Shown here one piece after another: positions 1,618 to 20,209 of a DNA stretch of 22,776 nt (its first letter is position 1; each line of letters opens with the position of its first letter). Origin of the DNA: a virus. Both the position numbers and the translations under genes were made by a program. Below the pieces are notes generated by a model. The model was not told the origin of the DNA, made no database searches, and saw nothing but the letters and a program-made list of their open reading frames with translations. The stretch covers positions 1 to 22,776 of IMG/VR virus record IMGVR_UViG_3300032271_001975; one strand, given 5' to 3'.

Positions 1618-1618
1618 T

Positions 1619-1626
1619 TATAAATA
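1619..1626 (+). promoter_or_regulatory. consensus late promoter element TATAAATA
   Basis: Exact TATAAATA, the T4 late-promoter consensus, starts 2 bases after the gp17 stop codon. With the usual T4 spacing, transcription would begin at about 1632, which is the first base of the next start codon, so the message could be leaderless. The match is seen in the sequence; its activity is inferred. Confidence 0.55.
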
Positions 1627-1631
1627 CAAAC

Positions 1632-2252
1632 ATGAGAGACAGATCAACCATTAGTAACAAAATTTTTGAAATATTAAAAGGTAGTGGATTCTATCTTCAG
1701 ATGTTTGATGACTATGGCATGAAAACCATTGAACCCACTGACGCTGATCGATTTTTTGCTACCAAAGAAAACACTGACCTATCAAGACCAGATCTGGATT
1801 CTTACAGCTTTCTGGTTTGTATCAACGATACCATGGACTCAATTGATATCAAAACACCCACTGCTAAAAAAATTGGCAAAGAAAATTATGCAGACATCAA
1901 GCAATTGGTGTCATATATAAAAACTGCAGTGGGACTAAGAGAAGATATTCTTGTTCATTGGGCCACATTCAATAGAATCATTAGACCTAGAGATGAAGTA
2001 CGTGCCAAAGACAAAACAGGAAAAGTATTAGAAGAACAAGAGCTATATGCATTTCTCAACCAGTTTACAGTGGAATCTATTTTTATTTTAAAAGAAGATC
2101 AAATTGATTCTGCTGCGGCAAAAGAGGCGTTAGAAATCCACAATTATGATTATGATGATACCATGAGCTACTTGATTGCAGTTGATCAAATGTGGCGAGC
2201 CAAGTATGAATCAGATCCAAAAGCTGCTTTTGATCTGTTGAAGCAACTGTAA
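1632..2252 (+). CDS. hypothetical protein, 206 aa
   Basis: I do not recognise this protein. It is a soluble, mixed-charge product without membrane segments or cysteine clusters; the middle contains a run typical of a small alpha/beta domain (SFLVCINDT followed by DIKTP), and the C-terminal third is acidic and helical. It starts 14 bases after gp17 with no visible Shine-Dalgarno; a late-promoter consensus ends 5 bases before the ATG. Starts at internal Met24 or Met30 are possible, but the first 23 residues look like normal protein. Its place between terminase and gp32 suggests a phage-specific role, but nothing in the sequence names one. Confidence 0.8.
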   Translation: MRDRSTISNKIFEILKGSGFYLQMFDDYGMKTIEPTDADRFFATKENTDLSRPDLDSYSFLVCINDTMDSIDIKTPTAKKIGKENYADIKQLVSYIKTAVGLREDILVHWATFNRIIRPRDEVRAKDKTGKVLEEQELYAFLNQFTVESIFILKEDQIDSAAAKEALEIHNYDYDDTMSYLIAVDQMWRAKYESDPKAAFDLLKQL

Positions 2253-2280
2253 ATTATTGACTGTTTGATCCCATATATAG

Positions 2281-2349
2281 CATAAATAGTGTGTCGGCAT
2301 GTTATGAAACATTAGCATGCGGTCTAGGCTCATAATATAGGAAAACAAC
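2281..2349 (+). promoter_or_regulatory. gp32 leader with late-promoter-like CATAAATA
   Basis: CATAAATA at 2281-2288 fits NATAAATA and lies 61 bases before the gp32 start. The leader that follows contains alternative small stems: ATGTT (2299-2303) with AACAT (2308-2312), and an overlapping GCATG (2297-2301) with CATGC (2316-2320). The ribosome site is AGGA just before the ATG. T4 gp32 represses its own translation through a structured leader; whether this leader does the same is inference. Confidence 0.4.
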
Positions 2350-3378
2350 ATGGCTCTTTCATTAAAAGAAATACAAGCGAAGCTTATGGAACAAGAGGCT
2401 CGCAAAGATCGTGCAAAGGGTGGCGCACCCAGTGGTGATAACGCAGTTTACCCTTTCTGGAACAATCCAAATTCAAGTACAGCTACACTGAGATTTTTGC
2501 CAGACGGCGATGAACTCAATGACTTTTTCTGGGTTGAGCGCTTGATCATCAAGTTGCCGTTTGCTGGTATCAAAGGACAACCAGGAGACAAGAGGGTTGA
2601 AGTTCAAGTTCCATGTGTTAACATGTGGAAGCCCAATAGCTGCCCAATCACTGCTGAAATTTCACCATGGTGGAAGCAGGATGATCTGCTGGAAATGGCT
2701 CGTACTTACTATCGTAAGAAAAGCTATCTATATCAAGGTTTGGTTACACAAAATCCCAACAAGGATGATCAACCACCAGAAAATCCCATTAGGCGTTTTA
2801 TCATCAACCAATCCATTCATGACATCATCAAGGGTATTTTGATGCGTCAGGATCTTGAACACACTCCGACTGATTATGACAACGGTCGAGACTTTTATTT
2901 GTCCAAGACTCAAAAGGGCGAATATGCCAACTATACCAGCAGTTCATGGGCCATGAAGGAACGTGCACTGAATCAGGACGAGTTGGATGCAATTGATCGC
3001 TTTGGTTTGTTCAACTTGAGCACATTCCTGCCCAAGAAGCCAGACGATGCACATCTCAAGGCCATGATGGAAATGTTTGAGGCAAGTGTCAACGGCGAAC
3101 AGTATGATGCTGATCGTTGGGCAGAATTCTACAAGCCAGCTGGACTAAAGACTGAAAACAATGGCAATGCTGCTGTTGATGATGTTCCTGCTGCAGTTGT
3201 ACCACGTGCAGCGCCAGTTGTACCACGTGCTGCTGCTCGTCCAGTACCAGTGCCAGCAGCAGTTGAAGATGACGCCCCGTTTGCTGCTGAACCAGCACCT
3301 GCTGCTAAAACAGCAAACAAGACCATGACCCCAGAGCAAATCTTGGCCATGGTTCGCAATAGAAACCAAAATCAATAA
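2350..3378 (+). CDS. 32: single-stranded DNA-binding protein gp32
   Basis: Cooperative ssDNA-binding protein of the T4 replisome and recombination machinery, 342 residues (T4: 301). A basic N-terminal helix (about 3-23) suits the protein-protein contact region. The core has the aromatic/basic pattern of the gp32 OB fold (YPFWNNPNSSTATLRFLPDG, then IIKLPF and SPWWK). The C-terminal part after about 265 is an Ala/Pro/Val-rich linker with an imperfect duplication (VVPRAA twice), then a short acidic stretch and a terminal helix. T4 gp32 holds zinc with one His and three Cys; here only C89 and C98 are visible in that region, so the zinc site looks incomplete. A strong stem-loop follows the gene, and uvsX begins 69 bases later. 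Confidence 0.9.
   Translation: MALSLKEIQAKLMEQEARKDRAKGGAPSGDNAVYPFWNNPNSSTATLRFLPDGDELNDFFWVERLIIKLPFAGIKGQPGDKRVEVQVPCVNMWKPNSCPITAEISPWWKQDDLLEMARTYYRKKSYLYQGLVTQNPNKDDQPPENPIRRFIINQSIHDIIKGILMRQDLEHTPTDYDNGRDFYLSKTQKGEYANYTSSSWAMKERALNQDELDAIDRFGLFNLSTFLPKKPDDAHLKAMMEMFEASVNGEQYDADRWAEFYKPAGLKTENNGNAAVDDVPAAVVPRAAPVVPRAAARPVPVPAAVEDDAPFAAEPAPAAKTANKTMTPEQILAMVRNRNQNQ
3194..3230 (+). repeat. short tandem duplication in the gp32 linker
   Basis: The 16-base string CAGTTGTACCACGTGC occurs at 3194-3209 and again at 3215-3230, a 21-base period that keeps the reading frame. It encodes the repeated VVPRAA of the flexible linker before the C-terminal tail and is probably a slippage or duplication product. 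Confidence 0.8.
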
Positions 3379-3400
3379 TCTAAAACATATTAAACCATAG

Positions 3401-3431
3401 CAACTGAAGGAGAGAACCTCTCCTTCAGTTG
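3401..3431 (+). promoter_or_regulatory. 14-bp perfect stem-loop between gp32 and uvsX
   Basis: CAACTGAAGGAGAG (3401-3414) pairs exactly with CTCTCCTTCAGTTG (3418-3431) around a 3-base loop. No T-run follows on the plus strand, so a standard Rho-independent terminator is not supported. It may be an mRNA processing or stability element separating the abundant gp32 message from uvsX. The uvsX ribosome site lies a few bases downstream and outside the stem. Confidence 0.7.
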
Positions 3432-3447
3432 TAGCAAAGGGATTGAG

Positions 3448-4521
3448 ATGAAACCGGTTGATATTTCAAAATTTAGAAAAGACATTACCAAAAATATTCC
3501 TGGCATGAGTGTGGGTTTTCATGACCCTACAACATGGATTTCAACAGGAAATTATGCACTGAATTATTCCATCAGTGGTGACTTTAATCGCGGAGTACCA
3601 CTGGGCAAGGTAACCATGTTTGCTGGTCAAAGTGGTTCTGGCAAGAGTTATATATGCAGTGGTAACCTTGTGCGTTATGCACAACAGCAAGGAATCTTTG
3701 TAGTACTAATAGACACTGAAAATGCTCTTGACGAAGCATGGTTGCATGCATTGGGAGTTGACACCAGTGAAAACAAACTGCTCAAAGTTAATATGGCCAT
3801 GGTCGATGACGTGGCTAAACTCATGAGCGACTTTGTTAAAGACTATAAAAGCCAGTACCTAAGCTTGGATGCAAAAGACCGTCCAAAATTCTTATTTGTA
3901 CTAGACAGCTTGGGTATGTTGCTGACTCCAACAGATGTTGATCAGTTTCAAAGCGGCAACATGAAGGGTGATATGGGTAGAAAGCCCAAAGCACTCACCA
4001 GCTTGGTGAGAAATTGCGTGAACATGTTTGGTGAATATGAAATTGGATTGGTTGCTACGAATCACAGCTACTCTAGTCAAGACATGTTCAATCCTGATGA
4101 CGTAATTTCTGGCGGACAGGGATTTGTGTATGCCAGTAGTATTGTGGTTGCCATGCGCAAACTCAAGCTCAAGGAAGATGCAGACGGTAACAAGACCAGT
4201 GAAGTGAATGGTATTCGTGCTGCATGTAAAGTCATGAAGACCAGGTACAACAAACCGTTTGAAGCTGTTGAAATAAAAATTCCCTGGGAATCTGGAATGG
4301 ACCCATACAGCGGACTTATTGATCTTTTTGAAAAGAAAGGTGTATTGGTCAAGGACGGTAACAAGCTTACATATACTGATAAAAAAGGCACAGTACATAA
4401 AAAGTTTAGAAGTCAGATTGACGAACCATTGCTTGACTTGATCATAAGTGAATGGGATGAATCCAACGTCACTAATAATAATTTGACCAGTGATTCTGAT
4501 TTATCTGCCGACTCGGAATAA
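3448..4521 (+). CDS. uvsX: UvsX, RecA-like recombinase
   Basis: Strand-exchange ATPase of recombination-dependent replication, 357 residues (T4: 391). The Walker A GQSGSGKS is at 60-67. LIDTENALD (87-95) carries the acidic residue expected of the RecA core, and the Walker B is FLFVLDSLGML (148-158). A later stretch, LVATNHSYSS, fits the DNA-binding loop region after strand 5. The C-terminus is Ser/Asp/Asn-rich. AAAGGGA lies just before the ATG. It is preceded by gp32 and followed by uvsY and uvsW, the other members of the same pathway. No intein is present in this gene. Confidence 0.95.
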   Translation: MKPVDISKFRKDITKNIPGMSVGFHDPTTWISTGNYALNYSISGDFNRGVPLGKVTMFAGQSGSGKSYICSGNLVRYAQQQGIFVVLIDTENALDEAWLHALGVDTSENKLLKVNMAMVDDVAKLMSDFVKDYKSQYLSLDAKDRPKFLFVLDSLGMLLTPTDVDQFQSGNMKGDMGRKPKALTSLVRNCVNMFGEYEIGLVATNHSYSSQDMFNPDDVISGGQGFVYASSIVVAMRKLKLKEDADGNKTSEVNGIRAACKVMKTRYNKPFEAVEIKIPWESGMDPYSGLIDLFEKKGVLVKDGNKLTYTDKKGTVHKKFRSQIDEPLLDLIISEWDESNVTNNNLTSDSDLSADSE

Positions 4522-4531
4522 ATTAGCAAAA

Positions 4532-4566
4532 CTAGCATGCAAGGTGTAAAATATTTTGCATGCTAG
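4532..4566 (+). promoter_or_regulatory. 11-bp stem-loop after uvsX
   Basis: CTAGCATGCAA (4532-4542) pairs exactly with TTGCATGCTAG (4556-4566) around a 13-base A/T-rich loop. It lies 10 bases after the uvsX stop and 24 bases before the next ATG. No T-run follows, so it is more likely a processing or stability element than a strong terminator. Confidence 0.6.
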
Positions 4567-4590
4567 ATACTAACACAATGGAGAATTTAT

Positions 4591-4830
4591 ATGACAATTA
4601 ATACCACCATGATACTGGATATTTGGGACTTGTTAAGCGAATACGTGCCTACCGCAAAAAAAGAAGATGCTGCAAATAAGTTATTGATAGTACTTGACAA
4701 TTATTCAATTGATTCAAGAGATTTGCAAAGCATACACGGAGAAGATCCACATCTGGATGCTGCTATCAAACACTTGTATGGCCATGACGATGTAGAAGAA
4801 GAAAATGACGAAGACGAAGAATTATTTTGA
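4591..4830 (+). CDS. small acidic hypothetical protein, 79 aa
   Basis: Unrecognised. The first 60 residues look like a compact helical domain and the last 13 are almost all Asp/Glu, ending in Leu-Phe. An acidic tail like this is common in phage DNA-metabolism partners and could mimic DNA or contact basic proteins, but that is inference. GGAG lies 8 bases or so before the ATG, supporting the start. It sits between uvsX and uvsY, probably in the same transcript. Confidence 0.75.
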   Translation: MTINTTMILDIWDLLSEYVPTAKKEDAANKLLIVLDNYSIDSRDLQSIHGEDPHLDAAIKHLYGHDDVEEENDEDEELF

Positions 4831-4850
4831 TTAGTTTGTCTCGATAAATC

Positions 4851-5303
4851 ATGTGGTATAACCGAATAGTAAAAGATCTATCCCAGCTTGGCGATGCTGT
4901 TACCTATTATAATCAAGAGTTAGATGTTGCAATCAAACAAACACATTTTAAGGGCAGTATCGAACGAAATAGTCAAGAGTTAAGCGGTATAACTGCTGAA
5001 AGATTTGCACAGTTGCAAGATGTTGAAGCCATCTTGAAATATTTGAACATACAACATGACAAACTGCGCAGTCAACATTATCGAAAATATCTAGAAAGAT
5101 ACAACAGGGAACTAAGTGATCGAGCCATCGAAAAATACATCGACGGCGAGGATGACATAGTGAGTCTATACGAACTAATCAACGAAGTGTCACTGGTGAG
5201 AAATAGATATCTAGCTGTCATGCGCGGATTGGAAATCAAACACTATCAAATTGGACATGTGACCAAATTGAGATGCAGTGGACTTGAAGATGCAACTGTC
5301 TAA
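4851..5303 (+). CDS. uvsY: UvsY-like recombination mediator
   Basis: Probable UvsY, the mediator that loads UvsX onto gp32-coated ssDNA; 150 residues against 137 in T4. The protein is basic, rich in predicted long helices, and the C-terminal third has the UvsY-like ending in which a run of hydrophobic helices is followed by RGLEIKHYQ (compare the RGFAIKH ending known in T4 UvsY). The context is decisive: small, downstream of uvsX and directly followed by uvsW. The ATG has no clear Shine-Dalgarno. Confidence is below that of uvsX because UvsY proteins diverge quickly. Confidence 0.75.
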   Translation: MWYNRIVKDLSQLGDAVTYYNQELDVAIKQTHFKGSIERNSQELSGITAERFAQLQDVEAILKYLNIQHDKLRSQHYRKYLERYNRELSDRAIEKYIDGEDDIVSLYELINEVSLVRNRYLAVMRGLEIKHYQIGHVTKLRCSGLEDATV

Positions 5304-5318
5304 CATAGAGATCATGCA

Positions 5319-6329
5319 ATGAACCAGTGCCAACTCATAATCGAAGATGAAGTAAACTGCAAGCTGGTGGGTCTTGACTTGAACACAAGAAAAGCATGTT
5401 CTACAGCATTGAAGTATTTTATTCCTGCTGCAAGATACAGTGCTGCATACAAGCTGGGCCGCTGGGATGGTACCAAGAGTTTCATGACCATTGGCGGTAG
5501 AACTTACTTGAATCTACTGGAAGTGGTATTGCCCATAATTCAAGAAGCTGGGTATGAATTAGACATCGTAGATCAGCGCAAGAGTTATTCCATTGCACTT
5601 ACACCCATTGACACTGCATATCACAGCAATAAGACTTGGCCTGCTGGTCATAGATTTGAAGGTCAACCTATCGAACTGCGAGATTATCAAGTGGATGTGA
5701 TCAACAGTTGTGTAAACAACCTGCAGGGTGTTGCTGTTGCTCCCACCAGTGCAGGCAAGACCATTATCACATCAACACTGAGTCAAATGATTGAACCATA
5801 TGGTCGCAGTATTGTGATTGTGCCTAATAAAAACCTTGTGCTGCAGACTGAAGAAGATTATGTGAACTTGGGATTGGATGTGGGTGTAATTTTTGGCGAT
5901 AGAAAAGAATACACTTGCAAGCATACCATATGCACTTGGCAAAGCTTGAACATACTGGACAAGAAAGGCAAAGATGCCTTAGACGAAGGTCAGTTGGAAG
6001 AATTCATGCAAGATCAAATCTGTGTAATAGCAGATGAGTGTTTTGATGGTGATGCGTTAGTTCTTACACCAACAGGTTACAAACCAATTAAAGATATATG
6101 TTCAGGTGACCAAGTAATAAATTATTCTGAGGAGACAAAAAGTTTTAAAACGGATACTGTAATCAAACAACATAAAAACCTTGTAAAATCCAATAGTGAA
6201 AAAATGTATGAATTAGAACTTGATAACGGTCAGCGTATAAAAGTAACCGGTAACCATAAGTTTTTGACAACTAATGGTTGGATTAGAGCCGTCGAATTAT
6301 CAACAGATCATGAAATCATTGGTTATTAA
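5319..6329 (+). CDS. uvsW: UvsW helicase N-terminal fragment with split-intein N half
   Basis: Residues 1-240 are the N-terminal half of UvsW, the superfamily 2 helicase that unwinds D- and R-loops and branched DNA. It has an N-terminal DNA-binding domain, then RDYQ (Q-motif-like, 121-124), Walker A APTSAGKT (141-148), IVPNKNLVLQ (motif Ia region) and TWQSL. It stops at VIADE, halfway through the DECH Walker B box. Residue 241 (TGT at 6039) is the catalytic Cys1 of an intein N half of 96 residues that ends at a TAA. The rest of the helicase is at 7403-8134. Without trans-splicing this fragment lacks motifs II-VI and should be inactive. Confidence 0.9.
   Translation: MNQCQLIIEDEVNCKLVGLDLNTRKACSTALKYFIPAARYSAAYKLGRWDGTKSFMTIGGRTYLNLLEVVLPIIQEAGYELDIVDQRKSYSIALTPIDTAYHSNKTWPAGHRFEGQPIELRDYQVDVINSCVNNLQGVAVAPTSAGKTIITSTLSQMIEPYGRSIVIVPNKNLVLQTEEDYVNLGLDVGVIFGDRKEYTCKHTICTWQSLNILDKKGKDALDEGQLEEFMQDQICVIADECFDGDALVLTPTGYKPIKDICSGDQVINYSEETKSFKTDTVIKQHKNLVKSNSEKMYELELDNGQRIKVTGNHKFLTTNGWIRAVELSTDHEIIGY
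6039..6329 (+). other. split intein N half (UvsW Int-N, 96 aa)
   Basis: Begins CFDGDALVLTPTGYKPI, a typical intein block A with catalytic Cys1. Block B is GQRIKVTGNHKFLTTNGW; its expected T-x-x-H appears as TGNH. The segment ends in the VELSTDHEIIGY region and a stop codon, with no block G. The C half is encoded 968 bases downstream after an unrelated ORF. Host protein context on both sides (VIADE before, CHRAA after) fixes the splice junction. An intact cis intein is ruled out by the stop codon and by different reading frames for the three parts. Confidence 0.9.
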
Positions 6330-6365
6330 TATAAATACATTGTGCAGCAGCGGATGTATTTATAT
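6329..6365 (+). promoter_or_regulatory. late promoter inside a hairpin over the endonuclease start
   Basis: ATATAAATACAT (6329-6340) pairs exactly with ATGTATTTATAT (6354-6365), a 12-bp stem with a 13-base loop. The left arm contains an exact TATAAATA (6330-6337); the right arm includes the first two bases of the endonuclease ATG (6364). Transcripts entering from uvsW would carry both arms and could hide the start region. Transcripts made from the late element would begin near 6343, inside the loop, and lose the left arm. T4 I-TevI is controlled by this logic. Confidence 0.65.
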
Positions 6366-7338
6366 GAAAATTAAATCAACTGAAATGATACAAAAATTTA
6401 ATAAAATATTAGAAAATGCTCAACAGAAAATTCGTATTTTAGAATGGTCTGGAACAAGTATTCTATTAAGCAATGGTTTAAAATTAGAATATGATAATAG
6501 ACGTGTATTCTTACGTAGACTTAGTTCTAATCAATCAATCTGGCGAGAAAACATTGATAATTTATTAGACGGTAGAATAACTGATAAAGAAATAAAGTCG
6601 ATTATTTCTAAAATTGGCGGATTTTCTTGTCAACATAAAAGAAAGGAACAAGGTTTACCAGCAATTATAAATCAACCAACAATACCATGGAATAAGGGTA
6701 AGATGTTGAATGAATACACTACTAAGGGTGGTAATTTGTATGCAGATTGTATGTGGCAAACTGGACAAACAAAAGAAACTAATAGTAAGTTGGCAAAACT
6801 AAGTAGAGATCGTACTTCTATTGGAAATCCCATGTACGGTAAAAAACATAATCAAGAAGTAAGAGAAGCCAAATCAAAATTAATGAAAGAAAAAATATTA
6901 AAGGGAGAATTTACTCCAAATTCTAATAATAGAAATACTCATTGGAATAGTATGCTTGATAGTAAAAAATATAGATCCTCTTGGGAGGCATTGTATCAAT
7001 ATTATAATCCCGCAGCAGAATACGAAAAACTCAGAATACCTTATGAATATTTAAATAATTATAAAATTTATATTGTGGATTTTATTGATTACACAAATAG
7101 AATTTTAATTGAAGTTAAACCAAAAGAATTATGCAATGGTGCTATACATGAAGCAAAAATGATAGCACTAGCAGATTGGGCAAAAATTAATAGATTTACT
7201 ATTCTAATTGCAAATCAAGAGTGGTTTTTAGTACAATCAAGCGATATTGATTATACTCGTTTTGACGAACTTACAGCAGCAAAAATAAAGAAATTTTATG
7301 AAGCTAATATCAAAAAAAGAAATAGAAAAGCCAATTGA
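6364..7338 (+). CDS. PD-(D/E)XK homing endonuclease in split uvsW
   Basis: Free-standing endonuclease ORF between the two halves of the uvsW split intein, 324 residues. Domains: an N-terminal region without recognised motifs, then GNPMYGKKHN (155-163) with following basic helix, matching the NUMOD3-type DNA-binding motif of phage homing enzymes. A C-terminal nuclease core follows with E208 (SSWEAL), D239 (YIVDF) and E250-x-K252 (LIEVKPK), the pattern of a PD-(D/E)XK fold. I chose Met at 6364 because it follows the promoter-hairpin; upstream in-frame Mets at 6274 and 6310 lie inside intein coding sequence. The gene is more A/T-rich than the flanking helicase, suggesting separate origin. Its last 41 bases overlap the start of the C fragment. 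Confidence 0.8.
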   Translation: MKIKSTEMIQKFNKILENAQQKIRILEWSGTSILLSNGLKLEYDNRRVFLRRLSSNQSIWRENIDNLLDGRITDKEIKSIISKIGGFSCQHKRKEQGLPAIINQPTIPWNKGKMLNEYTTKGGNLYADCMWQTGQTKETNSKLAKLSRDRTSIGNPMYGKKHNQEVREAKSKLMKEKILKGEFTPNSNNRNTHWNSMLDSKKYRSSWEALYQYYNPAAEYEKLRIPYEYLNNYKIYIVDFIDYTNRILIEVKPKELCNGAIHEAKMIALADWAKINRFTILIANQEWFLVQSSDIDYTRFDELTAAKIKKFYEANIKKRNRKAN

Positions 7339-7402
7339 AGTATATAATCTTCATATAGCAGATGATCACAATTATATTGTACAGGGCGCCGTAGTATCAA
7401 AC
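7298..7402 (+). other. split intein C half (UvsW Int-C, 35 aa)
   Basis: Starts with the Lys-rich MKLISKKEIEK, then VYNLHIADDHNYIVQGAVVSN, which contains block F (YNLHIADDHNY) and block G (VVSN) with the terminal Asn needed for cyclisation. The next residue is Cys+1 of CHRAA, the nucleophile for trans-splicing, which also restores DECH. The penultimate residue is Ser instead of the usual His, a variation tolerated in some inteins. Confidence 0.9.
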
Positions 7403-8134
7403 TGCCATAGAGCTGCTGCAGATGTACTCACAGGCTTGCTTACAGGTGTGTTTGCTAACATTCCCATAAGATGGGGGTTGACTGGTACACTGCCCAAGCA
7501 AGAACAAGACCGCATGAGCATATTGGCCAGCATTGGACCCACAGTGGGTCAGCTTACAGCCAAAGAACTGCAGGATCAAGGTTATCTAGCTCAATGCCAT
7601 GTAAACGTCATTCAAACACAGGAAACAGTCAAGTATAAAGACTATGCCACTGAATTAAAATACTTGACCACTGACGACACAAGATTGGCATGGTTGGCAG
7701 CAACCATACAGGACATTGCCAAAACTGGCAATACTCTGGTACTAGTGGATCGTATTGCATCTGGTAAAAAGCTCAACGAACTCATACCCGACAGCACTTT
7801 TGTGTCAGGCGAAATGAAAACTGCTGATAGAAAAGAACACTATAGCGACATCAACTTGGCAGAAAATGGTATATTGATTGCCAGCTATGGCACCACCAGT
7901 ACCGGCATCAGCATCAATAGAATTTTCAACTTGGTACTGGTAGAACCGGGCAAAAGCTTTGTGCGCACAATACAAAGCATTGGTCGAGGCTTGCGCAAAG
8001 CAAACGACAAAGACCGTGTGGAAATATATGATGTCAGCAGCAAATGCAAGTACAGTCAAAAACACTTAAAAGCCAGGATTGAATTTTACAAGGAAGCAGA
8101 ATATCCTCATTCAATGACCAAGGTAACCTATTAG
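7298..8134 (+). CDS. uvsW: UvsW helicase C-terminal fragment with split-intein C half
   Basis: After a 35-residue Int-C, the remaining 243 residues are the C-terminal half of UvsW. CHRAA completes the Walker B DECH box, GLTGT is motif III, LVLVDRIASG is motif IV, IASYGTTSTGIS is motif V and SIGRGLRK is motif VI. Joined to residues 1-240 of the N piece this gives 483 residues, close to T4 UvsW (about 500), so no host sequence appears missing. The ATG lies within the 3' end of the endonuclease ORF in another frame, with only a weak ribosome site. A rare alternative would be two separate non-spliced polypeptides, but both intein halves look intact. Confidence 0.9.
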   Translation: MKLISKKEIEKPIEVYNLHIADDHNYIVQGAVVSNCHRAAADVLTGLLTGVFANIPIRWGLTGTLPKQEQDRMSILASIGPTVGQLTAKELQDQGYLAQCHVNVIQTQETVKYKDYATELKYLTTDDTRLAWLAATIQDIAKTGNTLVLVDRIASGKKLNELIPDSTFVSGEMKTADRKEHYSDINLAENGILIASYGTTSTGISINRIFNLVLVEPGKSFVRTIQSIGRGLRKANDKDRVEIYDVSSKCKYSQKHLKARIEFYKEAEYPHSMTKVTY

Positions 8135-8228
8135 ATTAGACCTAAAAATGTAAAAATAACTTGTTGTTTTCTTGTAAATTCTACAATAATTTATCTTAAA
8201 TATACGCAACTTAACTTCCGGTGTTTGC

Positions 8229-8729
8229 ATGCGTATACTAACCAATCACAACCAACCATATAACCTCAATCAAATACCGGATCAAATTGAAGATGTTCGT
8301 TTTTGTGTGTTGGACTATAGTGATCAATCTGATGTTGACTATTATTTCATACCACTGATTTTTTTAGAAAGTTTTAATAGTCCCTGCGTGGATATTAAAA
8401 TAGGCAATACAAATATACAAATGCCCTTGGACTGGAGTGTGATAATAGGCGATATCAACAGCGGAGATTTAGAAATCATGCCGCTGGTGTATTTGAATGA
8501 CAAAGATTTCGATGTGTTTACCTACAATCCCATCAATGGCTACATGCCCAAGTTTTCTAAATTTCAAGTGATCAATATTTGGCCAGATGTCAAGTGGTAT
8601 TTTCCCAAATTGAAAAATGGAAATTTTCTTGCTGTGCCACTTGAAGACAAAGAGTCGCCGTTGTGTGCATTTTTCATCAAGGATGCTGGCAAAGTGCCAG
8701 AATCAATTGATATCCGTAAATTGTTTTAG
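8229..8729 (+). CDS. hypothetical protein, 166 aa
   Basis: Not recognised, though it has the feel of a well-conserved T4-like protein. It is acidic, soluble, rich in aromatic residues, with patterns such as MPLDWSVIIGD and VKWYFPKLKNGNFLAVPL that suggest a compact beta-rich domain. The start is the first ATG after the 94-base gap following uvsW; no strong Shine-Dalgarno is visible. A bidirectional terminator begins 8 bases after its stop. It may be expressed with uvsW or from its own promoter in the A/T-rich gap. Confidence 0.75.
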   Translation: MRILTNHNQPYNLNQIPDQIEDVRFCVLDYSDQSDVDYYFIPLIFLESFNSPCVDIKIGNTNIQMPLDWSVIIGDINSGDLEIMPLVYLNDKDFDVFTYNPINGYMPKFSKFQVINIWPDVKWYFPKLKNGNFLAVPLEDKESPLCAFFIKDAGKVPESIDIRKLF

Positions 8730-8736
8730 AAAAAAC

Positions 8737-8772
8737 AAAACCCTCTGATCACTAGGGCTTTCAGAGGGTTTT
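8737..8772. terminator. bidirectional Rho-independent terminator
   Basis: AAAACCCTCTGA (8737-8748) pairs with TCAGAGGGTTTT (8761-8772), a 12-bp stem with a 12-base loop. Read on the minus strand it is followed by a T-rich run (TTTTGTTTTTT); on the plus strand the stem itself ends in TTTT. It sits between the plus-strand gene ending at 8729 and the minus-strand gene ending at 8813, so it can serve both. Confidence 0.85.
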
Positions 8773-8812
8773 GCCTGAGTCTGCTGGGCTTGCTTAAGGC
8801 CGAGCTAGAATT

Positions 8813-9916
8813 TTATGCTGTGGTTATAGTAGCAGTATATGCAGCAGTTAGAGTAGTTCCTGTGCCATACCAAGTATACACATTACCACCCCAAGTCACA
8901 ACAGTATCGTCGTTAATTTTGTAAGCATACTCTGTTGATGCAGTTTTTGTAAATGTCACAGATGGAATGCTTGCATAGTTACCGCCAGCATACACAGTTA
9001 CTGAACTGACACCACCCGAAGACACAGTGGAAAATGCCTGTGCATAACCAGTAGGTGAACCGCCAACAAAACTCACAAGTGGAGCACCATCATATCCTGT
9101 TCCGTTTACTCCCATGACCACTCCGTTAACGGTCCAACGACCGTTAACAGTTGCACCTGTGCCAAGTGCACTGCCCACCAAGCTGATTGGGTTTGATGGA
9201 ATAGCAGTGAACACACCCTGTGCTGCTGGAGAAGTTGTGTTCAATCCCCAACCAATATTGAATGTTGCACCGGTTACACCTGTGTTAGCAGTGACCGCAC
9301 TGGTGGGAGTGACTGGGTTAGTGGGCAGGGTTGGATTGGTATAGCTACCGCCAGTGGTCACTGTAACAGTGGCAACCTGTCCATTACCAGTTGTGGTTGC
9401 AACTCTGAGCACAGTGGGTATCAAGTAGTCACCACTGGTAAAAGTAAATGTATCTCCTACGGTATAACCATTGGCATTATCATTTACTGCTGCTGCTCTA
9501 GCATGCACTGTGTGCACTGTTACAGTTGCAACTGCTGTGTTGGTTCCTCCAACCACAGTGAGTACTTCGCCTGGTGCATAACTGGCGCTGGTGCTGCCAG
9601 TACCGTCAGTGACAATCACAGTTGAGTACAAGCCCACTGTGGCGTTGGCTGATACACCACTACCGCTTGCACCATATGGTGTAACAGTGACTGTGGCTTG
9701 TCCTGCAGCAGTTGGTGAAGAGTTTTGCAGTGCCACAGTGTCTTGAAAAGAATCTCCGCTGTAGTCAACATGTGCAATATAGTGTCCGGTGCCCTGTTGT
9801 CTCACTAGATAACCGTTTCTGGCCTGACTATCGCCGTAGACCCAGGCGCTGACTTGAATTTGTTGTCCGCTTGTGGCGGTATTGCCAATCAAATTCTTTT
9901 TTATTGGACGACCCAT
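8813..9916 (-). CDS. fibre-like virion structural protein
   Basis: 367 residues made almost wholly of Gly, Thr, Val, Ala, Ser and Asn in beta-strand-like alternation, typical of phage fibre, whisker or head-decoration proteins. Imperfect repeats of the form G-x-Y-x3-P-x-V-x-F occur (GTGYDGAPLVSFVGG, GGNYASIPSVTFT, GGSYTNP), plus related NGYTVGDTFTF and SYAPGEVLTVVGG. The N-terminus (GRPIKKNLIGN, then a QQIQVSAWVYGD segment) is non-repetitive and probably anchors it. Shine-Dalgarno-like AGGAG precedes the ATG, and a GATAAATA late element lies 37 bases upstream. The exact position in the virion cannot be told. Confidence 0.75.
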   Translation of the reverse strand: MGRPIKKNLIGNTATSGQQIQVSAWVYGDSQARNGYLVRQQGTGHYIAHVDYSGDSFQDTVALQNSSPTAAGQATVTVTPYGASGSGVSANATVGLYSTVIVTDGTGSTSASYAPGEVLTVVGGTNTAVATVTVHTVHARAAAVNDNANGYTVGDTFTFTSGDYLIPTVLRVATTTGNGQVATVTVTTGGSYTNPTLPTNPVTPTSAVTANTGVTGATFNIGWGLNTTSPAAQGVFTAIPSNPISLVGSALGTGATVNGRWTVNGVVMGVNGTGYDGAPLVSFVGGSPTGYAQAFSTVSSGGVSSVTVYAGGNYASIPSVTFTKTASTEYAYKINDDTVVTWGGNVYTWYGTGTTLTAAYTATITTA

Positions 9917-9953
9917 GTGTTTAATCTCCTAGAGGAATGCTGTTAATGTAACT

Positions 9954-9961
9954 TATTTATC
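9954..9961 (-). promoter_or_regulatory. late-promoter-like GATAAATA
   Basis: Minus-strand GATAAATA (9961 down to 9954) fits NATAAATA and lies 37 bases upstream of the fibre-like gene at 9916, a normal late-leader length. Late transcription suits a virion protein. Confidence 0.6.
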
Positions 9962-9996
9962 AATAGCTGGTAGTTGAGCAGCAATAGTGTAACTAT

Positions 9997-10025
9997 TTGG
10001 AGTTTTGATGTATCATTGTTATAAT
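9997..10025 (+). promoter_or_regulatory. possible sigma70-type promoter for the 10046 cluster
   Basis: TATAAT at 10020-10025 is a perfect -10 box. The best -35 at 17-base spacing is TTGGAG (9997-10002), a weak match to TTGACA. It lies 20 bases before the first gene of a plus-strand replication-type cluster, which would suit early or middle expression by host polymerase, perhaps with a phage activator. Confidence 0.4.
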
Positions 10026-10045
10026 AGCTTCTAGAAGGTAACGAC

Positions 10046-10540
10046 ATGGCAGCTAAAAAGAAAACATATGATCTAGACTTGTTTGCTACTCTCAATGCCA
10101 TTGACCACAATCGGCAAGACTATTACAACAATCTCAGTGATCGAGAAAAGAAAGCATATGCAGCATTGGTGCTCATGCGTTACATGAGCAGCTTGCCCAG
10201 TCAAAATTCACAATGTGCAAATTCAGTAGTCTTTGTTAATGACATAGTAAACATCAATCTATGGGCTACCAGTCGTTTTCCAGATCTGCAGCATCGACTG
10301 CTGTGTGTATGCGGCATTGGCGGAAAACAACAAAGGCCCTGGTTGGCAGCTGGACAGAAAAAACGCAGCAACAAACCACTGGTTGATCAACTGTTACTGG
10401 AACTCAATCCCTGGATGAACACACAAGAGTTGCAATTGCTCAAAAGTAAATATGACAAAGTCTCTATTGGTATCCTGGCACTAGATGCTGGGTATACAGA
10501 AAAACAAGCGCAAGCAGTGTCCAAGGAGTTTGACAGCTAA
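10046..10540 (+). CDS. 62: probable clamp-loader small subunit (gp62-like)
   Basis: Probable gp62, which works with the gp44 ATPase to load the gp45 sliding clamp; 164 residues (T4: 187). Support is by pattern rather than strict motif: an N-terminal DLFATLNAID segment, a long helix with LVLMRYMSSLPSQ, and a central VNINLWATSRFPDLQHRLL followed by a basic KKQRPWLAAGQKKR stretch. These recall the order seen in marine T4-like gp62 proteins (short helix, N-x-x-N, hydrophobic helix, basic R/K-W motif). AAGG precedes the ATG. gp44 and gp45 are not in the window. Alternative: an unrelated helical hypothetical. Confidence 0.6.
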   Translation: MAAKKKTYDLDLFATLNAIDHNRQDYYNNLSDREKKAYAALVLMRYMSSLPSQNSQCANSVVFVNDIVNINLWATSRFPDLQHRLLCVCGIGGKQQRPWLAAGQKKRSNKPLVDQLLLELNPWMNTQELQLLKSKYDKVSIGILALDAGYTEKQAQAVSKEFDS

Positions 10541-10542
10541 AC

Positions 10543-11235
10543 ATGAGTGATGCAGCTTATGCATGCGAATTTTGTAAAAGAACGTTTACCACTGAAAAAT
10601 ATCTCATCAATCACAGTTGTGAGAAAAAACGCAGGTGGTTTCAGCGTGACGAACCACATGCTAGATTTGGGTTTTTAGCATGGAATCGATTTTATACCAT
10701 TAGTCAAAAACACAGCACCGCAGTAAAAAAACACAGTCAGCGACATTTTATCGACAGTCCTTTTTATACTGCATTTGTTAAATTTGGCAGGCACATTGTG
10801 GATCTTGATGCAATCAATCCAGACCGATATATTGATTATGTGATCAAGGCCAACATACCCATTGATCGATGGTGCAATGATTTTGTGTATGAACAATATG
10901 TTCGAGATCTAACCAAAAAAGAGTCAGCTGAAGATGCACTGGAAAGAAACATCTTGCTCATGCAGCAGTGGAGTAACGAAGCTGGTGAACCCTGGCATGA
11001 CTTTTTTAAAAAGATCAACACCAATCAAGCAATTGCTTGGTTGAGAAGTGGAAGAATCAGTCCGTGGATATTGTATAATGCTAGTTCAGCTGATAACTTG
11101 TTCAATCGATGCACACCAGAACAGCTGGACATGATAAAACAATATGCACCCACTGCAACATGGAAAATTAAATTTAGTAAAAGCCAAACCAGTGTAAAAT
11201 TTCTACAAGACATGCTGCATCAAGCAGGACTATAA
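10543..11235 (+). CDS. zinc-finger protein, 230 aa
   Basis: The first 30 residues hold a classical-looking finger, C-x2-C-x12-H-x-C, with Phe and Leu spacing as in C2H2 fingers (YACEFCKRTFTTEKYLINH) and a trailing basic KKRR. This suggests nucleic-acid binding. The remaining 200 residues are helical, rich in Trp, Tyr and Asn, with no catalytic motif I can name. It starts 2 bases after the gp62-like stop, with AAGGAG 13 bases before the ATG inside the upstream gene, so translation is probably coupled. Eukaryote-like single fingers are known in some T4-like marine phage proteins; the target is unknown. Confidence 0.7.
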   Translation: MSDAAYACEFCKRTFTTEKYLINHSCEKKRRWFQRDEPHARFGFLAWNRFYTISQKHSTAVKKHSQRHFIDSPFYTAFVKFGRHIVDLDAINPDRYIDYVIKANIPIDRWCNDFVYEQYVRDLTKKESAEDALERNILLMQQWSNEAGEPWHDFFKKINTNQAIAWLRSGRISPWILYNASSADNLFNRCTPEQLDMIKQYAPTATWKIKFSKSQTSVKFLQDMLHQAGL

Positions 11236-11247
11236 AAGGACAATGTA

Positions 11248-11562
11248 ATGAATAGTGATTTAGAAATGTATGCAACCAATGACAGTGAACAAGACGCTGT
11301 TGAACAGGATGCCATAACAGATCCGCAGTCTATCAATGTGGAAAATTTTTCTACTACCACATTGCTCACTATTGGCAAAAATCAAGTGAGTGTGATCAAT
11401 CCCTTGTATGTGGCCAATCTCAAACATCAATTGGAACAGGCAAATAGAAAAATTGCAACCATGGATCGCACACTCAAGCGTGTGACATTTGAACTGGCCA
11501 ATGCTGCCAGAGACATTAGACGCTTGCAGCAAGAAATGGATCAAAAGGTGGATTATGAATAA
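11248..11562 (+). CDS. coiled-coil hypothetical protein, 104 aa
   Basis: Unrecognised. Residues 1-40 are acidic and probably disordered; residues 55-100 form a heptad-like charged helix (LKHQLEQANRKIATMDRTLK and onward), consistent with a coiled coil and self-association. AAAGGA precedes the ATG. Its stop overlaps the start of the next gene by 8 bases, so the two are likely translated in a coupled way. Confidence 0.75.
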   Translation: MNSDLEMYATNDSEQDAVEQDAITDPQSINVENFSTTTLLTIGKNQVSVINPLYVANLKHQLEQANRKIATMDRTLKRVTFELANAARDIRRLQQEMDQKVDYE

Positions 11563-16551: not shown

Positions 16552-16974
16552 ATGACTCATGCCAGCGACGACATACGTAAATTTATAAATTTGCTTACTG
16601 AAGCAACCACAGGGCCTGACACACCGCATGCCAAGGATCCAACACCCGATCAAGTGAAACAAGATTCATCTGTACCGGTTGCAGACACTGCTGAGCTGTT
16701 GGTCAAACCAGCCAGTCTTGAGCTAGAAGGCAATGTTAATTTTCAAACTCTAGCAGACAAGTTGGATATTAAAAATGTTGCACTGTTTAGGCAAGCATTC
16801 AACAAGTTGAGAAAATTACAACCAAATAAAGATTTTCGCACCAAATTGACTCAAAACGAGCTTGCTGAACTAACATATGCATTCTATCAACTGTTGACTG
16901 CCGATGCCAAAGACAGCCAACAGATCTTGAGAAACCTGCGTCAAATTCACTTGAAGAAAAATACTAGCGTTTGA
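16552..16974 (+). CDS. hypothetical protein, 140 aa
   Basis: Unrecognised. An N-terminal amphipathic helix (DIRKFINLLTEA) is followed by a Pro/Asp-rich disordered stretch (about 20-50), then a helical C-terminal domain (residues 60-140) with FRQAFNKLRKLQ. This layout resembles small virion-associated proteins of marine T4-like phages, without proof. GGAG lies 8-9 bases before the ATG and a consensus late promoter lies 46 bases upstream. Its 3' end overlaps the end of gp41 on the other strand by 11 bases. Confidence 0.65.
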   Translation: MTHASDDIRKFINLLTEATTGPDTPHAKDPTPDQVKQDSSVPVADTAELLVKPASLELEGNVNFQTLADKLDIKNVALFRQAFNKLRKLQPNKDFRTKLTQNELAELTYAFYQLLTADAKDSQQILRNLRQIHLKKNTSV

Positions 16975-17446
16975 TAATATTACGCAGTTGCGATAAATCT
17001 TTTACAGTGGTTGATGGAGCACTTGCCGTAGACTCTTCTGCATGCTTGTTTTTTCTTCTAAGATCTGCAAACACATCTGCAGTGCTGGTGGCAGTGGACA
17101 GCCTGGAATCTTCTTCATCAAGATGAAAAATGCGCAGGGTATGTGGATCAAATCCCAGTGTGAGTTTTCCACCCACACCACTGCTGCTGCGTGTTTTGAG
17201 AAACTGTATTTGATACTCACCGCGTTCTTTCATGGCAGTGGTGGCATAGATTGATATCACATTGTCTGCAGTCTGAATTTTGGAAATACCACCAGCAATC
17301 ATGCTGTGGTCATGTTCTTGTTCTTGCACAGCACTATTATGTGTTAAAATACCGTTGGCAATAAACAACTGATTGCCACTGACATTAATATCGATGGTAT
17401 CTTCAAGACCAACATATTCTATACTAACAATTTCGTCATCAATCAT
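16964..17446 (-). CDS. 41: gp41 helicase C-terminal fragment with split-intein C half
   Basis: After a 37-residue Int-C, 123 residues form the end of the DnaB-family replicative helicase: SAVQEQEHDHSMIAGGIS, IQTADNVISIYAT, then FLKTRSSSGVG with the arginine-rich conserved end of the motor and a disordered tail. Together with residues 1-346 of the N piece it makes 469 residues, close to T4 gp41 (475). The ATG overlaps the endonuclease stop as ATGA, and a strong AAAGGAGG lies 6 bases upstream, stronger than most ribosome sites here, which suits a fragment needed in stoichiometric amount. Confidence 0.9.
   Translation of the reverse strand: MIDDEIVSIEYVGLEDTIDINVSGNQLFIANGILTHNSAVQEQEHDHSMIAGGISKIQTADNVISIYATTAMKERGEYQIQFLKTRSSSGVGGKLTLGFDPHTLRIFHLDEEDSRLSTATSTADVFADLRRKNKHAEESTASAPSTTVKDLSQLRNIIKR
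17336..17446 (-). other. split intein C half (gp41 Int-C, 37 aa)
   Basis: Begins with the acidic MIDDEIVSIEYVGLED and continues IDINVSGNQLFIANGILTHN, with block F and a canonical block G ending His-Asn. The +1 extein residue is Ser, giving QLNR|SAV after splicing. It closely resembles the gp41-1 type split inteins described from metagenomic phage DNA. Confidence 0.92.
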
Positions 17447-18945
17447 GGTTTGCCTCCTTTATACAGTTTATATAAATAGTGGCCGCAATCATATATTCGA
17501 ATAGCATTTATATTGTTCATTATTTGTTTTTCAGTCAAGGTTGGATCATATCCCATCTTTACTAATTTCTTTTTGGTCCAGGATAGTCTATGATAAATTT
17601 GGTCTTTATACCAATACCAGTACCCTGGTTTGGTCATACCAACCAGGGTAAAGTTGTTTTTTAAATATACCGCCCCAGTACCATACCGAAGATCAGCATA
17701 TGTTTCAATATCTATATTTGGGTATTTCTCATCTATGTATTTTAGAAATTTCCCCAGTGCTCCCGGTAAATTTCTAGAAAACGCTAATCGTACAATTTCG
17801 ATGCAGTTGGACAAGTTTTTAAATCTATTCTTGTGAGATATAGTACACACTGCCAGCAGCGTGGAGTTGAAAAATAATCCCAAATGTTCTGATGCATTGG
17901 CTGCACCACTGACATGATACTGATTGAGAAATTTTTTTGATTCGGCAATGCTGATCAATTTAACGATACATTTTCTGGTATGTATTTTTTCAACAGTGTT
18001 GTTATTATTTTTTATATTTAACCGATGTTTAATCATGCTCAGTGTTAGTTCTTTATGATTGAACCATTCGTGATCTGAGATCATGAGTAACCTTATGTTG
18101 TGTTCATTGCATAAGATGAATTTTTTTTGATGATACATGTTAGCAATTTGATCATCGCTGTGCCAATAGCTGCCATTGAATTCTATTGCAAAATTTTCCA
18201 ATGGAAAATATAAATCTAATTCTTTTGGCTTGATTATTGATCTACTGTTTTCTATAATCTCGCCTGAGTAAAATTTACGTATTTCTTCTAAAATTTCTTT
18301 TTCGGTATTGCTTTGCTTGCCAAAAAAGCCTTTGGGAAAACAGCTTGGGCATTTTGGTATTTTTCCCAGTATATTATCTAAAAATTCATTATTACAGTGC
18401 ACGCATTTCCATTTCAATGATGAATCATTGTGCCTGGTATATTCTTCAAATGTAAACAGCGGCACCGAGTAATCTTGAAATTTCGAAAGGGAATTATAAA
18501 AGGTAAGCTGCTTGGATCTAGATCTAGCAGTTTTTAAAGCCTCAATTTGTCCGGGATTGGTTACCCCGTATTTGCTCATCAGGGTGTTTTTAAATTTTTC
18601 TTTATAGCTAGACGTTTTTGAAAAATGTTTTACTCCATACTTGCTGATGCAGGTGTTGCGTTTTTTATCTGCTGTTGTAGTAGATCGCGACATACACGAC
18701 ACACTACAAAACATTGTAAAGCCTCTTCTAAAATCTAAAAACTTTGCAGGCTTGTTACACACTGAACAGGTGGGATCAAGTTGATAAACATATCTCCAAA
18801 CTTTTTCAGAAAAGCTATTGCCAGTTTGATTATCTGCTATTTTTTCAAATAATGCAGCATTTTCTTTTTTCAGTGTGCCAAATGCACCTTTGGGGTTAGA
18901 TCCCCAAAGTTTTAACAAATAATTTTTCTCCGACTGATAGTCCAT
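17443..18945 (-). CDS. Vsr-like homing endonuclease in split gp41
   Basis: 500-residue endonuclease between the gp41 halves. Four-Cys zinc knuckle C60-x2-C63 ... C80-x3-C84, then two KYGV segments with basic helices (103-106, 125-128) typical of phage homing-enzyme DNA binding. A second Cys4 site follows (C181, C184, C199, C202). The nuclease core is KELDLY (241-246), IEFNGSYWHSD (254-264) and DHEW (291-294), the EDxHD pattern of the Vsr-like family reported with fractured genes. The C-terminal 170 residues form another domain (KFLNQYHVSGAANASEHLG and onward), perhaps acetyltransferase-like, unproven. It overlaps the gp41 N piece by 50 bases and the C piece by 4. Its A/T-rich, Lys-rich coding differs from the neighbouring gp41 sequence. 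Confidence 0.85.
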   Translation of the reverse strand: MDYQSEKNYLLKLWGSNPKGAFGTLKKENAALFEKIADNQTGNSFSEKVWRYVYQLDPTCSVCNKPAKFLDFRRGFTMFCSVSCMSRSTTTADKKRNTCISKYGVKHFSKTSSYKEKFKNTLMSKYGVTNPGQIEALKTARSRSKQLTFYNSLSKFQDYSVPLFTFEEYTRHNDSSLKWKCVHCNNEFLDNILGKIPKCPSCFPKGFFGKQSNTEKEILEEIRKFYSGEIIENSRSIIKPKELDLYFPLENFAIEFNGSYWHSDDQIANMYHQKKFILCNEHNIRLLMISDHEWFNHKELTLSMIKHRLNIKNNNNTVEKIHTRKCIVKLISIAESKKFLNQYHVSGAANASEHLGLFFNSTLLAVCTISHKNRFKNLSNCIEIVRLAFSRNLPGALGKFLKYIDEKYPNIDIETYADLRYGTGAVYLKNNFTLVGMTKPGYWYWYKDQIYHRLSWTKKKLVKMGYDPTLTEKQIMNNINAIRIYDCGHYLYKLYKGGKP

Positions 18946-19171
18946 CTTCTAAGCTTTTTAATCCTGTGTTGGTTGGAAATTTGTGTTTTGCACTACATAT
19001 GATTTCTTTACCAGATTTAGTAGTAATCCTAAATACCGGCTGTTTAATTACCGGCAATACCTCTAACACTTCTACTGGTTCATGGTCTGACTCAAGCATG
19101 TCTCCGACTGCAACGTTTGATAGTTTTTTATTTTTGCCATTGCAAATGACCATGGATTCTGGTGAAAGACA
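18896..19171 (-). other. split intein N half (gp41 Int-N, 91 aa)
   Basis: Begins CLSPESMVICNGKNKKLSN (block A, Cys1); the usual T-x-x-H of block B is replaced by CSAKH (GKEIICSAKHKFPTNTG), which closely parallels the CSEEH form I recall from gp41-1. It ends GEKLFVKTLGI at a stop codon. The stop codon sits in the loop of a small perfect hairpin, CTTTGGGG with CCCCAAAG (18888-18909). Confidence 0.92.
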
Positions 19172-20209
19172 TCTGTTTAGCTGTGATGCCGTGAGCAATA
19201 CAAAATTGTATTCAACTGCTAGACCTCTTAATTCTTCACTTACATATTTATCCTTGATGAACAAGTCTGCTGCACTGATACGCTTGTCATTGGGATACAT
19301 GAGATCCAGGTAATCCACAATCAACATATCGGGCATGTGCCCTTCTTGAATTGCATAGTTTTTGAGATAGGCCTTTAGATCATTTGTTCTACTGCCCTGC
19401 GGCATTTGCTTGATATGCAGCTTGCCGCTTTTGAAGCCATGTTGCTTGACCTTGATTTCCACTTGATCAATGTTCTTGAATATTTCCTTGGTGGCAACTT
19501 CGCTCAGCATGCTGTCCAATCGCATGCTGGTGAGTTCTTCACTGAGTTCCAAGCTGATGTACACCACGTGCAGTCCCTGTCGCACACCATTGAGACTGAG
19601 GTTTTGCAAAAACAAACTTTTGCCCACGCCAGAACCTGCCACAAAAATATCCAGCTCTCCTCGGTTCCAGCCGCCATACAGTCTGTCGTCCAAGGACTTC
19701 CATCCAGTGCTCATCTGTCCATTCTTGTCCTTGATTTTCATCAAGCGTGCTCGCGGATCAGCAAAGTAGTCAGTGCCAAGGTCGCTTTGCAAACAAATCA
19801 GCATGGCATCTCTAATGCGCTTTTCAAGCTCGCCATAGTTGCCTTCTTCAACCAAGTGTGCGCCTTCCACCACAGCACTGCCCAGTGCACGGTTTTTACA
19901 AAACTCTTCAATGTCTTCAAGAAAGCTCACTGCATGCTGCGGTAATATGTTGGGTATGTGTTGAAAGTCAATGTTGGTTTCTGCATTCACCTGTTCAACC
20001 TTGGGCAGCACATGATACTTTTCAGTATATGCCATGATCATGCGCACTGCTGGGCGCAGTTTGTTGACAAAGTAGTTGGGATTCAAAATATTCACACATC
20101 GGGTATAGATGTCTTCGCTGCTGAGCAGCACATCAATCAAGAGTTTTTGACTGTCTTCATTGTAGTTTTTCTTGGGCGCAGTGCTTTTCTTGTTGGCGGC
20201 TTGACTCAT
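18896..20209 (-). CDS. 41: gp41 replicative helicase N-terminal fragment with split-intein N half
   Basis: Residues 1-346 are the front part of the hexameric 5'-3' replicative helicase gp41. There is an N-terminal collar domain, then the RecA-like motor with Walker A AGSGVGKS (191-198), YISLELS (217-223) with the catalytic-type Glu, Walker B MLIVDYLDLM (295-304) and LLTASQLNR (338-346). There the intein starts: Cys347 opens a 91-residue Int-N and the ORF ends at TAA 18896. The C-terminal 123 residues are at 17335-16967. AAAGGAT lies 8 bases before the ATG. It starts 6 bases after gp61, its primosome partner. Confidence 0.92.
   Translation of the reverse strand: MSQAANKKSTAPKKNYNEDSQKLLIDVLLSSEDIYTRCVNILNPNYFVNKLRPAVRMIMAYTEKYHVLPKVEQVNAETNIDFQHIPNILPQHAVSFLEDIEEFCKNRALGSAVVEGAHLVEEGNYGELEKRIRDAMLICLQSDLGTDYFADPRARLMKIKDKNGQMSTGWKSLDDRLYGGWNRGELDIFVAGSGVGKSLFLQNLSLNGVRQGLHVVYISLELSEELTSMRLDSMLSEVATKEIFKNIDQVEIKVKQHGFKSGKLHIKQMPQGSRTNDLKAYLKNYAIQEGHMPDMLIVDYLDLMYPNDKRISAADLFIKDKYVSEELRGLAVEYNFVLLTASQLNRCLSPESMVICNGKNKKLSNVAVGDMLESDHEPVEVLEVLPVIKQPVFRITTKSGKEIICSAKHKFPTNTGLKSLEDGLSVGEKLFVKTLGI

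What the first reader, a model, noticed from the sequence alone, without database searches (positions are those of the whole stretch)
16964..20209. A second fractured gene: gp41 helicase with split intein and Vsr-like endonuclease
The gp41 halves (346 and 123 residues) join at QLNR|SAV through an Int-N of 91 and an Int-C of 37 residues resembling gp41-1, a fast split intein. The ORF between is a 500-residue two-zinc-site EDxHD endonuclease. Having two fractured replication/recombination helicases in one 23-kb stretch, each with a different endonuclease class, makes the phage doubly dependent on trans-splicing.
Basis: partly seen in the sequence, partly recalled or inferred. Interest (0 to 1): 0.75.

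Follow-up and report, generated by a model that had tools for sequence, protein, structure and literature searches.

The report
Phage helicase gene split by intein
A phage replication-helicase gene is broken in two by a split intein (a self-removing protein segment) with a gene-spreading endonuclease between the halves, so the helicase must be made in two pieces and spliced together; this is a well-preserved new example of an arrangement described in 2009, not a new kind of system.

Summary
gp41 DnaB-like helicase is split 346+123 aa at SQLNR|SAV by Int-N (91 aa) and Int-C (37 aa), with a 500-aa endonuclease ORF between. It is a "fractured gene" as Dassa et al. 2009 defined it: a new member of a known kind. 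Splicing is indirectly supported: catalytic residues are kept, and the +1 residue is Ser/Cys/Thr in 13/13 intein alleles but 7/50 intact ones (sister allele: QLNR|GAV). The AT-rich tract ends at the intein borders. A Shine-Dalgarno motif before every Int-C start and differing HEN/Int-C frames favour separate translation over frameshifting. The endonuclease belongs to the EDxHD family (profile match to I-Bth0305I, E 1.6e-9) and carries a Mom-like GNAT-fold C-terminal domain. Corrections: the intein is not gp41-1 type; it falls in the SQLNR|SAV-site clade (gp41-8-like, from memory). The uvsW+gp41 double fracture recurs in three other phages. No intact gp41 was found in the ~57 kb available, and gp41 is single-copy in ten long relatives. 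HEN type does not follow intein or extein phylogeny, which suggests endonuclease exchange at a fixed intein site. Splicing and cleavage are inferred, not shown.

The parts
19172..20209 (-). gp41 DnaB-like helicase, N-extein (346 aa, ends ...TASQLNR)
   Evidence: phrog_19 E 1e-54, Pfam DnaB_C E 8.5e-19; GC 45.3%
18896..19171 (-). Int-N of split intein (91 aa, Cys1) plus stop codon
   Evidence: aligns with gp41-1 6qaz; 43-60% identical Int-N at the same site in relatives; GC 36.6%
17443..18945 (-). endonuclease ORF (500 aa): helical N-terminus, Cys4 zinc site, DUF7487-type linker, second Cys4 site, EDxHD nuclease domain, Mom-like GNAT-fold C-terminal domain; start codon inside Int-N codon 76, frame +1 (50-nt overlap)
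   Evidence: phrog_3339 homing endonuclease E 8.8e-90; profile vs 3r3p E 1.6e-9; Foldseek 3r3p rank 1 for the nuclease domain, 8bv8 Mom E 3e-8 for the full model; overlap
17962..18351 (-). EDxHD nuclease domain of the endonuclease (E215, D244, E255, H262, D291)
17446..17988 (-). Mom-like GNAT-fold C-terminal domain of the endonuclease
17336..17446 (-). Int-C (37 aa, MIDDEIVSIEY...GILTHN) with start codon overlapping the HEN stop by 4 nt (ATGA); AAAGGAGG Shine-Dalgarno inside the HEN 3' end
   Evidence: TIGR01443 E 9.1e-6 above cut-off; Shine-Dalgarno and overlap
16964..17335 (-). gp41 C-extein (123 aa, starts SAVQEQEHD) plus stop codon
   Evidence: phrog_19 E 5.4e-8; continues the reading frame of intact relatives
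5319..6329 (+). second fractured gene in the same window: UvsW N-half (DE|C) with Int-N
   Evidence: phrog_16259 E 2e-52, TIGR01445 E 1.6e-13
6364..7338 (+). UvsW-associated endonuclease, PD-(D/E)XK-like with NUMOD3; likely start M31 at 6364, TATAAATA at 6330-6337 just upstream
7298..8134 (+). Int-C plus UvsW C-half
   Evidence: phrog_9690 E 7.4e-60, TIGR01443

Best explanation
A mobile split-intein/homing-endonuclease cassette sits in the gp41 replicative helicase gene. One minus-strand message probably carries primase, gp41N-IntN, endonuclease and IntC-gp41C (inferred from gene order). The two helicase halves are translated separately; Int-N and Int-C associate and splice in trans through Cys1, Asn37 and Ser+1, giving a 469-aa gp41 (inferred from conserved residues and the +1 rule). 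The EDxHD endonuclease is free-standing: it starts inside Int-N in another frame and is released as its own protein. It is predicted to cut uninterrupted gp41 alleles near QLNR|(G/S)AV of co-infecting phages, so that repair copies the cassette with some flanking DNA, bringing along Ser+1 (inferred). Among relatives the same intein site holds different endonuclease families or none, so endonucleases are swapped or lost while the split, and the need to trans-splice, remain.
For: Exact anatomy. Empty alleles in 77/80 relatives, sister L002 included. +1 nucleophile in 13/13 intein alleles vs 7/50 intact, Fisher p 7e-9, relatedness not corrected. Parallel in UvsW: DE|CH in 5/5 intein alleles vs no Cys in 74 intact ones. 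GC 31-37% in IntN, HEN and IntC vs 44-45% in the exteins. All loci of this HEN family found in viral contigs (with the window, five distinct) lie in the same gp41 intein; in each of the five the HEN starts at IntN codon 76-77 in frame +1 and a GGAG-type Shine-Dalgarno precedes the IntC start. EDxHD membership by profile and fold. No Rfam intron in the window. HEN-bearing gp41s do not form one clade: p-AU 0.0004 on the extein tree, 0.051 on the intein tree.
Against: No splicing, cleavage or homing was measured. The clade rejection is not significant if L002 is allowed inside (p 0.17), so loss in L002 is possible instead of recent gain. The record is a fragment, so an intact second gp41 cannot be excluded outright. 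The +1 association is inflated by shared ancestry.
Confidence: 0.9

Rival explanations
1. The three ORFs are really one contiguous large intein read through by two programmed frameshifts, giving a cis-splicing intein with an embedded endonuclease domain.
For: The ORFs overlap by 50 and 4 nt, and full-length inteins with embedded endonucleases are common.
Against: The HEN/IntC frame relation differs between homologues (2 in window and L168, 1 in L085, L092, L093), so no one shift serves all. Each IntC has its own GGAG-type Shine-Dalgarno and start codon. At the same site other HEN families do not overlap Int-N, and some split inteins have no HEN.
Confidence: 0.03
2. The locus is a decayed relic: gp41 is non-functional here and an intact helicase is encoded elsewhere.
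For: The record is a fragment; the contig holding L003 shows an in-frame TAA in Int-N where its near-identical twin L086 has CAA, so decay or sequencing error occurs in the group.
Against: All window frames are open and splicing residues kept; gp41 is single-copy in ten relatives of 142-372 kb; no gp41 in the 45.7-kb near-identical contig.
Confidence: 0.04
3. The endonuclease is a restriction-modification-like fusion (nuclease plus momylation domain) that protects the phage or excludes competitors, and its position in gp41 is incidental.
For: The C-terminal domain has the Mom fold; jumbo-phage Mom domains are reported as typically fused to REase-fold nucleases and read as restriction systems (PMC7824862).
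Against: All loci of this subfamily found lie in the same intein site; the position of Mom Ser124 appears not conserved (Pro in window) in the profile alignment (numbering inferred).
Confidence: 0.1

Closest known systems
Fractured genes with split inteins and free-standing endonucleases (Dassa et al. 2009, NAR 37:2560; paper not held, content from memory and from citing papers)
   Same: Conserved DNA-replication enzyme broken by a split intein with an endonuclease ORF between the halves, in phage; Vsr-related endonuclease family
   Different: Nothing essential; this copy shows a HEN start buried in Int-N and a Mom-like C-terminal domain
gp41-8 split intein (memory; table values in PMC11766414: Cys1, Ser+1, Int-N 94, Int-C 50)
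   Same: Cys1 and Ser+1; probably the same insertion site (recalled, not tested)
   Different: Int-N 91 and Int-C 37 aa here; reference sequence not available for comparison
gp41-1 split intein (PDB 6qaz)
   Same: Homologous intein in the same helicase family (E 1.1e-23)
   Different: Different insertion site (junction SSS, 3 residues downstream) and different clade
EDxHD homing endonuclease I-Bth0305I (PDB 3r3p)
   Same: Nuclease domain: profile E 1.6e-9, Foldseek rank 1
   Different: I-Bth0305I is group I intron-encoded; this one sits between intein halves and adds zinc sites and a Mom-like domain
Fractured polB of Pseudomonas phage MIJ3 (PMC6892783)
   Same: Split intein with an endonuclease gene between the halves in a jumbo phage
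   Different: Other host gene, HNH endonuclease

Membership tests
Fractured gene (Dassa 2009) | Conserved enzyme gene broken in two at a site where relatives are uninterrupted | tested here: met
   77/80 relatives uninterrupted
Fractured gene (Dassa 2009) | Break occupied by Int-N and Int-C with splicing residues (Cys1, block B His, penultimate His, Asn, nucleophile +1) | tested here: met
Fractured gene (Dassa 2009) | Free-standing endonuclease ORF between the halves | tested here: met
Fractured gene (Dassa 2009) | Protein trans-splicing occurs | not testable with these tools
   needs expression
EDxHD homing endonuclease | Vsr/REase-like catalytic domain related to I-Bth0305I | tested here: met
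   profile 3r3p E 1.6e-9; Foldseek 3r3p rank 1, 1vsr/1cw0 ranks 8-9
EDxHD homing endonuclease | Catalytic E, D, H, D residues | tested here: met
   E215, D244, H262, D291 invariant in four close homologues; D244 and H262 invariant in nine
EDxHD homing endonuclease | Site-specific cleavage of the empty allele | not testable with these tools
   biochemistry needed
gp41-1-type intein | Insertion site and clade of gp41-1 | tested here: not met
   site 3 residues upstream; 99% vs 95% supported separate sets; junction SAV vs SSS
gp41-8-type intein | Same site and nearest sequence | not testable with these tools
   reference sequence not held; Cys1 and Ser+1 agree
Mom family (DNA momylation) | Mom-like GNAT fold | tested here: met
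   8bv8 top Foldseek hit, E 3e-8, prob 1.00
Mom family (DNA momylation) | Catalytic residues such as Ser124 | tested here: inconclusive
   aligned position is Pro in the window in the profile alignment; numbering inferred from the S124A mutant chain

The most novel reading that the evidence does not exclude
The endonuclease combines site-specific cutting with a working Mom-type DNA modification domain, so the homing cassette could mark and protect DNA from its own nuclease: a homing element with built-in self-immunity.
Probability: 0.06. Interest if true: 0.65.

Novelty: new member of a known kind. Interest (0 to 1): 0.33.

Why it matters
The locus with its relatives forms a natural series: empty site, contiguous mini-intein (seen in UvsW), split intein with one of three endonuclease families, split intein with a decayed or no endonuclease. 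That series shows how endonuclease insertion can create split inteins that then persist. It also offers new natural split-intein pairs for protein engineering, and a phage in which two important helicases would each need trans-splicing.

Tried and rejected
HEN alone as query in viral contigs found nothing because the patterns were too specific; an alignment of four HENs then worked. phmmer of the HEN alone against PDB gave nothing; the nine-sequence profile did. No intron or tRNA in the window. gp41-1 kinship considered and rejected. Frameshift fusion considered and rejected. Recoded stop in L003 considered; its near-identical twin L086 has CAA, so a nonsense variant or sequence error. Dassa 2009 and the I-Bth0305I paper are not held. 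HEN-family monophyly on trees tested, with mixed results.

Full report
Observation. The helicase halves match the same PHROG profile in adjoining parts. The fused intein aligns with the solved gp41-1 intein, but in a tree it belongs with inteins at SQLNR|SAV, not with gp41-1. The record is a 22.8-kb virus fragment. A 99.8% identical contig of 45.7 kb overlaps window 319-11261 and extends about 34 kb to the left; it has no gp41.

Is it real? Of 80 viral relatives, 77 have uninterrupted gp41 across the exact codon junction, including the closest, L002 (68% identical). In ten relatives of 142-372 kb gp41 is single-copy and unsplit, with open frames of 464-516 aa against 469 for the predicted spliced product. 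Thirteen distinct alleles carry a split intein at this site. The AT-rich tract (31-37% GC) is confined to IntN, HEN and IntC, against 44-45% in the flanking exteins; the UvsW element shows the same step.

Evidence for splicing. The residue after the intein must be Ser, Thr or Cys (established intein chemistry). It is so in 13/13 intein alleles and in 7/50 intact ones, where Gly dominates; the sister L002 has QLNR|GAVQEQ where the window has QLNR|SAVQEQ (Fisher p 7e-9, relatedness not corrected). In UvsW the intein alleles have DE|CH in 5/5, while none of 74 intact alleles has Cys. Splicing itself is inferred, not shown.

Two proteins or one? The HEN starts inside IntN at codon 76-77 in frame +1 in all five loci of its family; it ends in overlap with the IntC start, but in two different frame relations, and a GGAG-type Shine-Dalgarno precedes each IntC start. 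This favours separate translation over frameshifting.

The endonuclease. A nine-sequence profile matches I-Bth0305I (3r3p) at E 1.6e-9, and the modelled nuclease domain has 3r3p as its best fold match, with Vsr behind. The two Cys4 sites are invariant in close homologues. The C-terminal ~180 residues have the fold of phage Mu Mom (8bv8, E 3e-8). Iyer et al. 2021 reported Mom domains fused to REase-fold nucleases in jumbo phages (PMC7824862), so the fusion is not new. The catalytic serine position looks lost in the window (numbering inferred), so modification activity is doubtful.

Evolution. Between gp41 intein halves I found three endonuclease families and many loci with none. The window's type occurs in five distinct loci, all at this site. 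On the extein tree these five are not one clade (p-AU 0.0004), though allowing the intact sister inside removes the rejection (p 0.17); on the intein tree p is 0.051. Exchange or independent gain of endonucleases is the simplest reading. L126 keeps what looks like a HEN remnant, and L096 and L103 have none. At the UvsW site L175 has a contiguous 131-aa mini-intein whose junction matches the window's split point, a plausible pre-split state.

Double fracture. UvsW is also split here, with a PD-(D/E)XK-like endonuclease between its halves. Three other contigs with fractured gp41 carry an intein at the same UvsW site: fractured with a HEN in the L083 contig, split without one in the L085 contig, and an Int-N/Int-C pair about 170 nt apart in the L096 contig. 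The combination therefore recurs.

Verdict. A well-supported new member of the fractured-gene class of Dassa et al. 2009 (from memory and citing papers; original not held).

Noticed in passing
L252:6862-8055 (-), in the 45.7-kb contig near-identical to window 319-11261: A RuBisCO large-chain-like protein (Pfam PF00016 E 5.4e-35; motif DFIKEDE) in a phage, amid glycosyl- and methyltransferase-like genes.
   Followed up: partly
window 6330-6337 (+): T4-late-promoter-like TATAAATA just after the UvsW Int-N stop and shortly before the likely endonuclease start at 6364; 5 such sites in the window against 1.0 expected.
   Followed up: partly
L082, L083, L084, L085, L087, L088: gp41 broken twice: besides QLNR|SAV, a second break in the Walker A loop by an atypical split intein (short Int-N, ~150-aa Int-C) with another endonuclease, so the helicase would be assembled from three polypeptides.
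   Followed up: partly
L175:5724-6116: Contiguous 131-aa mini-intein at the UvsW site whose internal junction coincides with the split point in the window; possible pre-split ancestor state.
   Followed up: partly
L096:4293-5108: Split gp41 intein with no endonuclease ORF in the gap, plus a contiguous intein in Walker A of the same gene.
   Followed up: partly
L003:5933-5935: In-frame TAA in Int-N where the near-identical contig of L086 has CAA: nonsense variant or sequence error.
   Followed up: yes
L165 (Shigella phage ESh36, T4-like isolate, record marked UNVERIFIED): Fractured gp41 with a 332-aa ORF between the halves, about 15 residues downstream of the window's site; a phage for which a laboratory isolate may exist.
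   Followed up: no
L251:12022-13635 (+) and L252:13050-14507 (+): Two further free-standing endonuclease-like ORFs resembling the EDxHD type in the near-identical contig.
   Followed up: no
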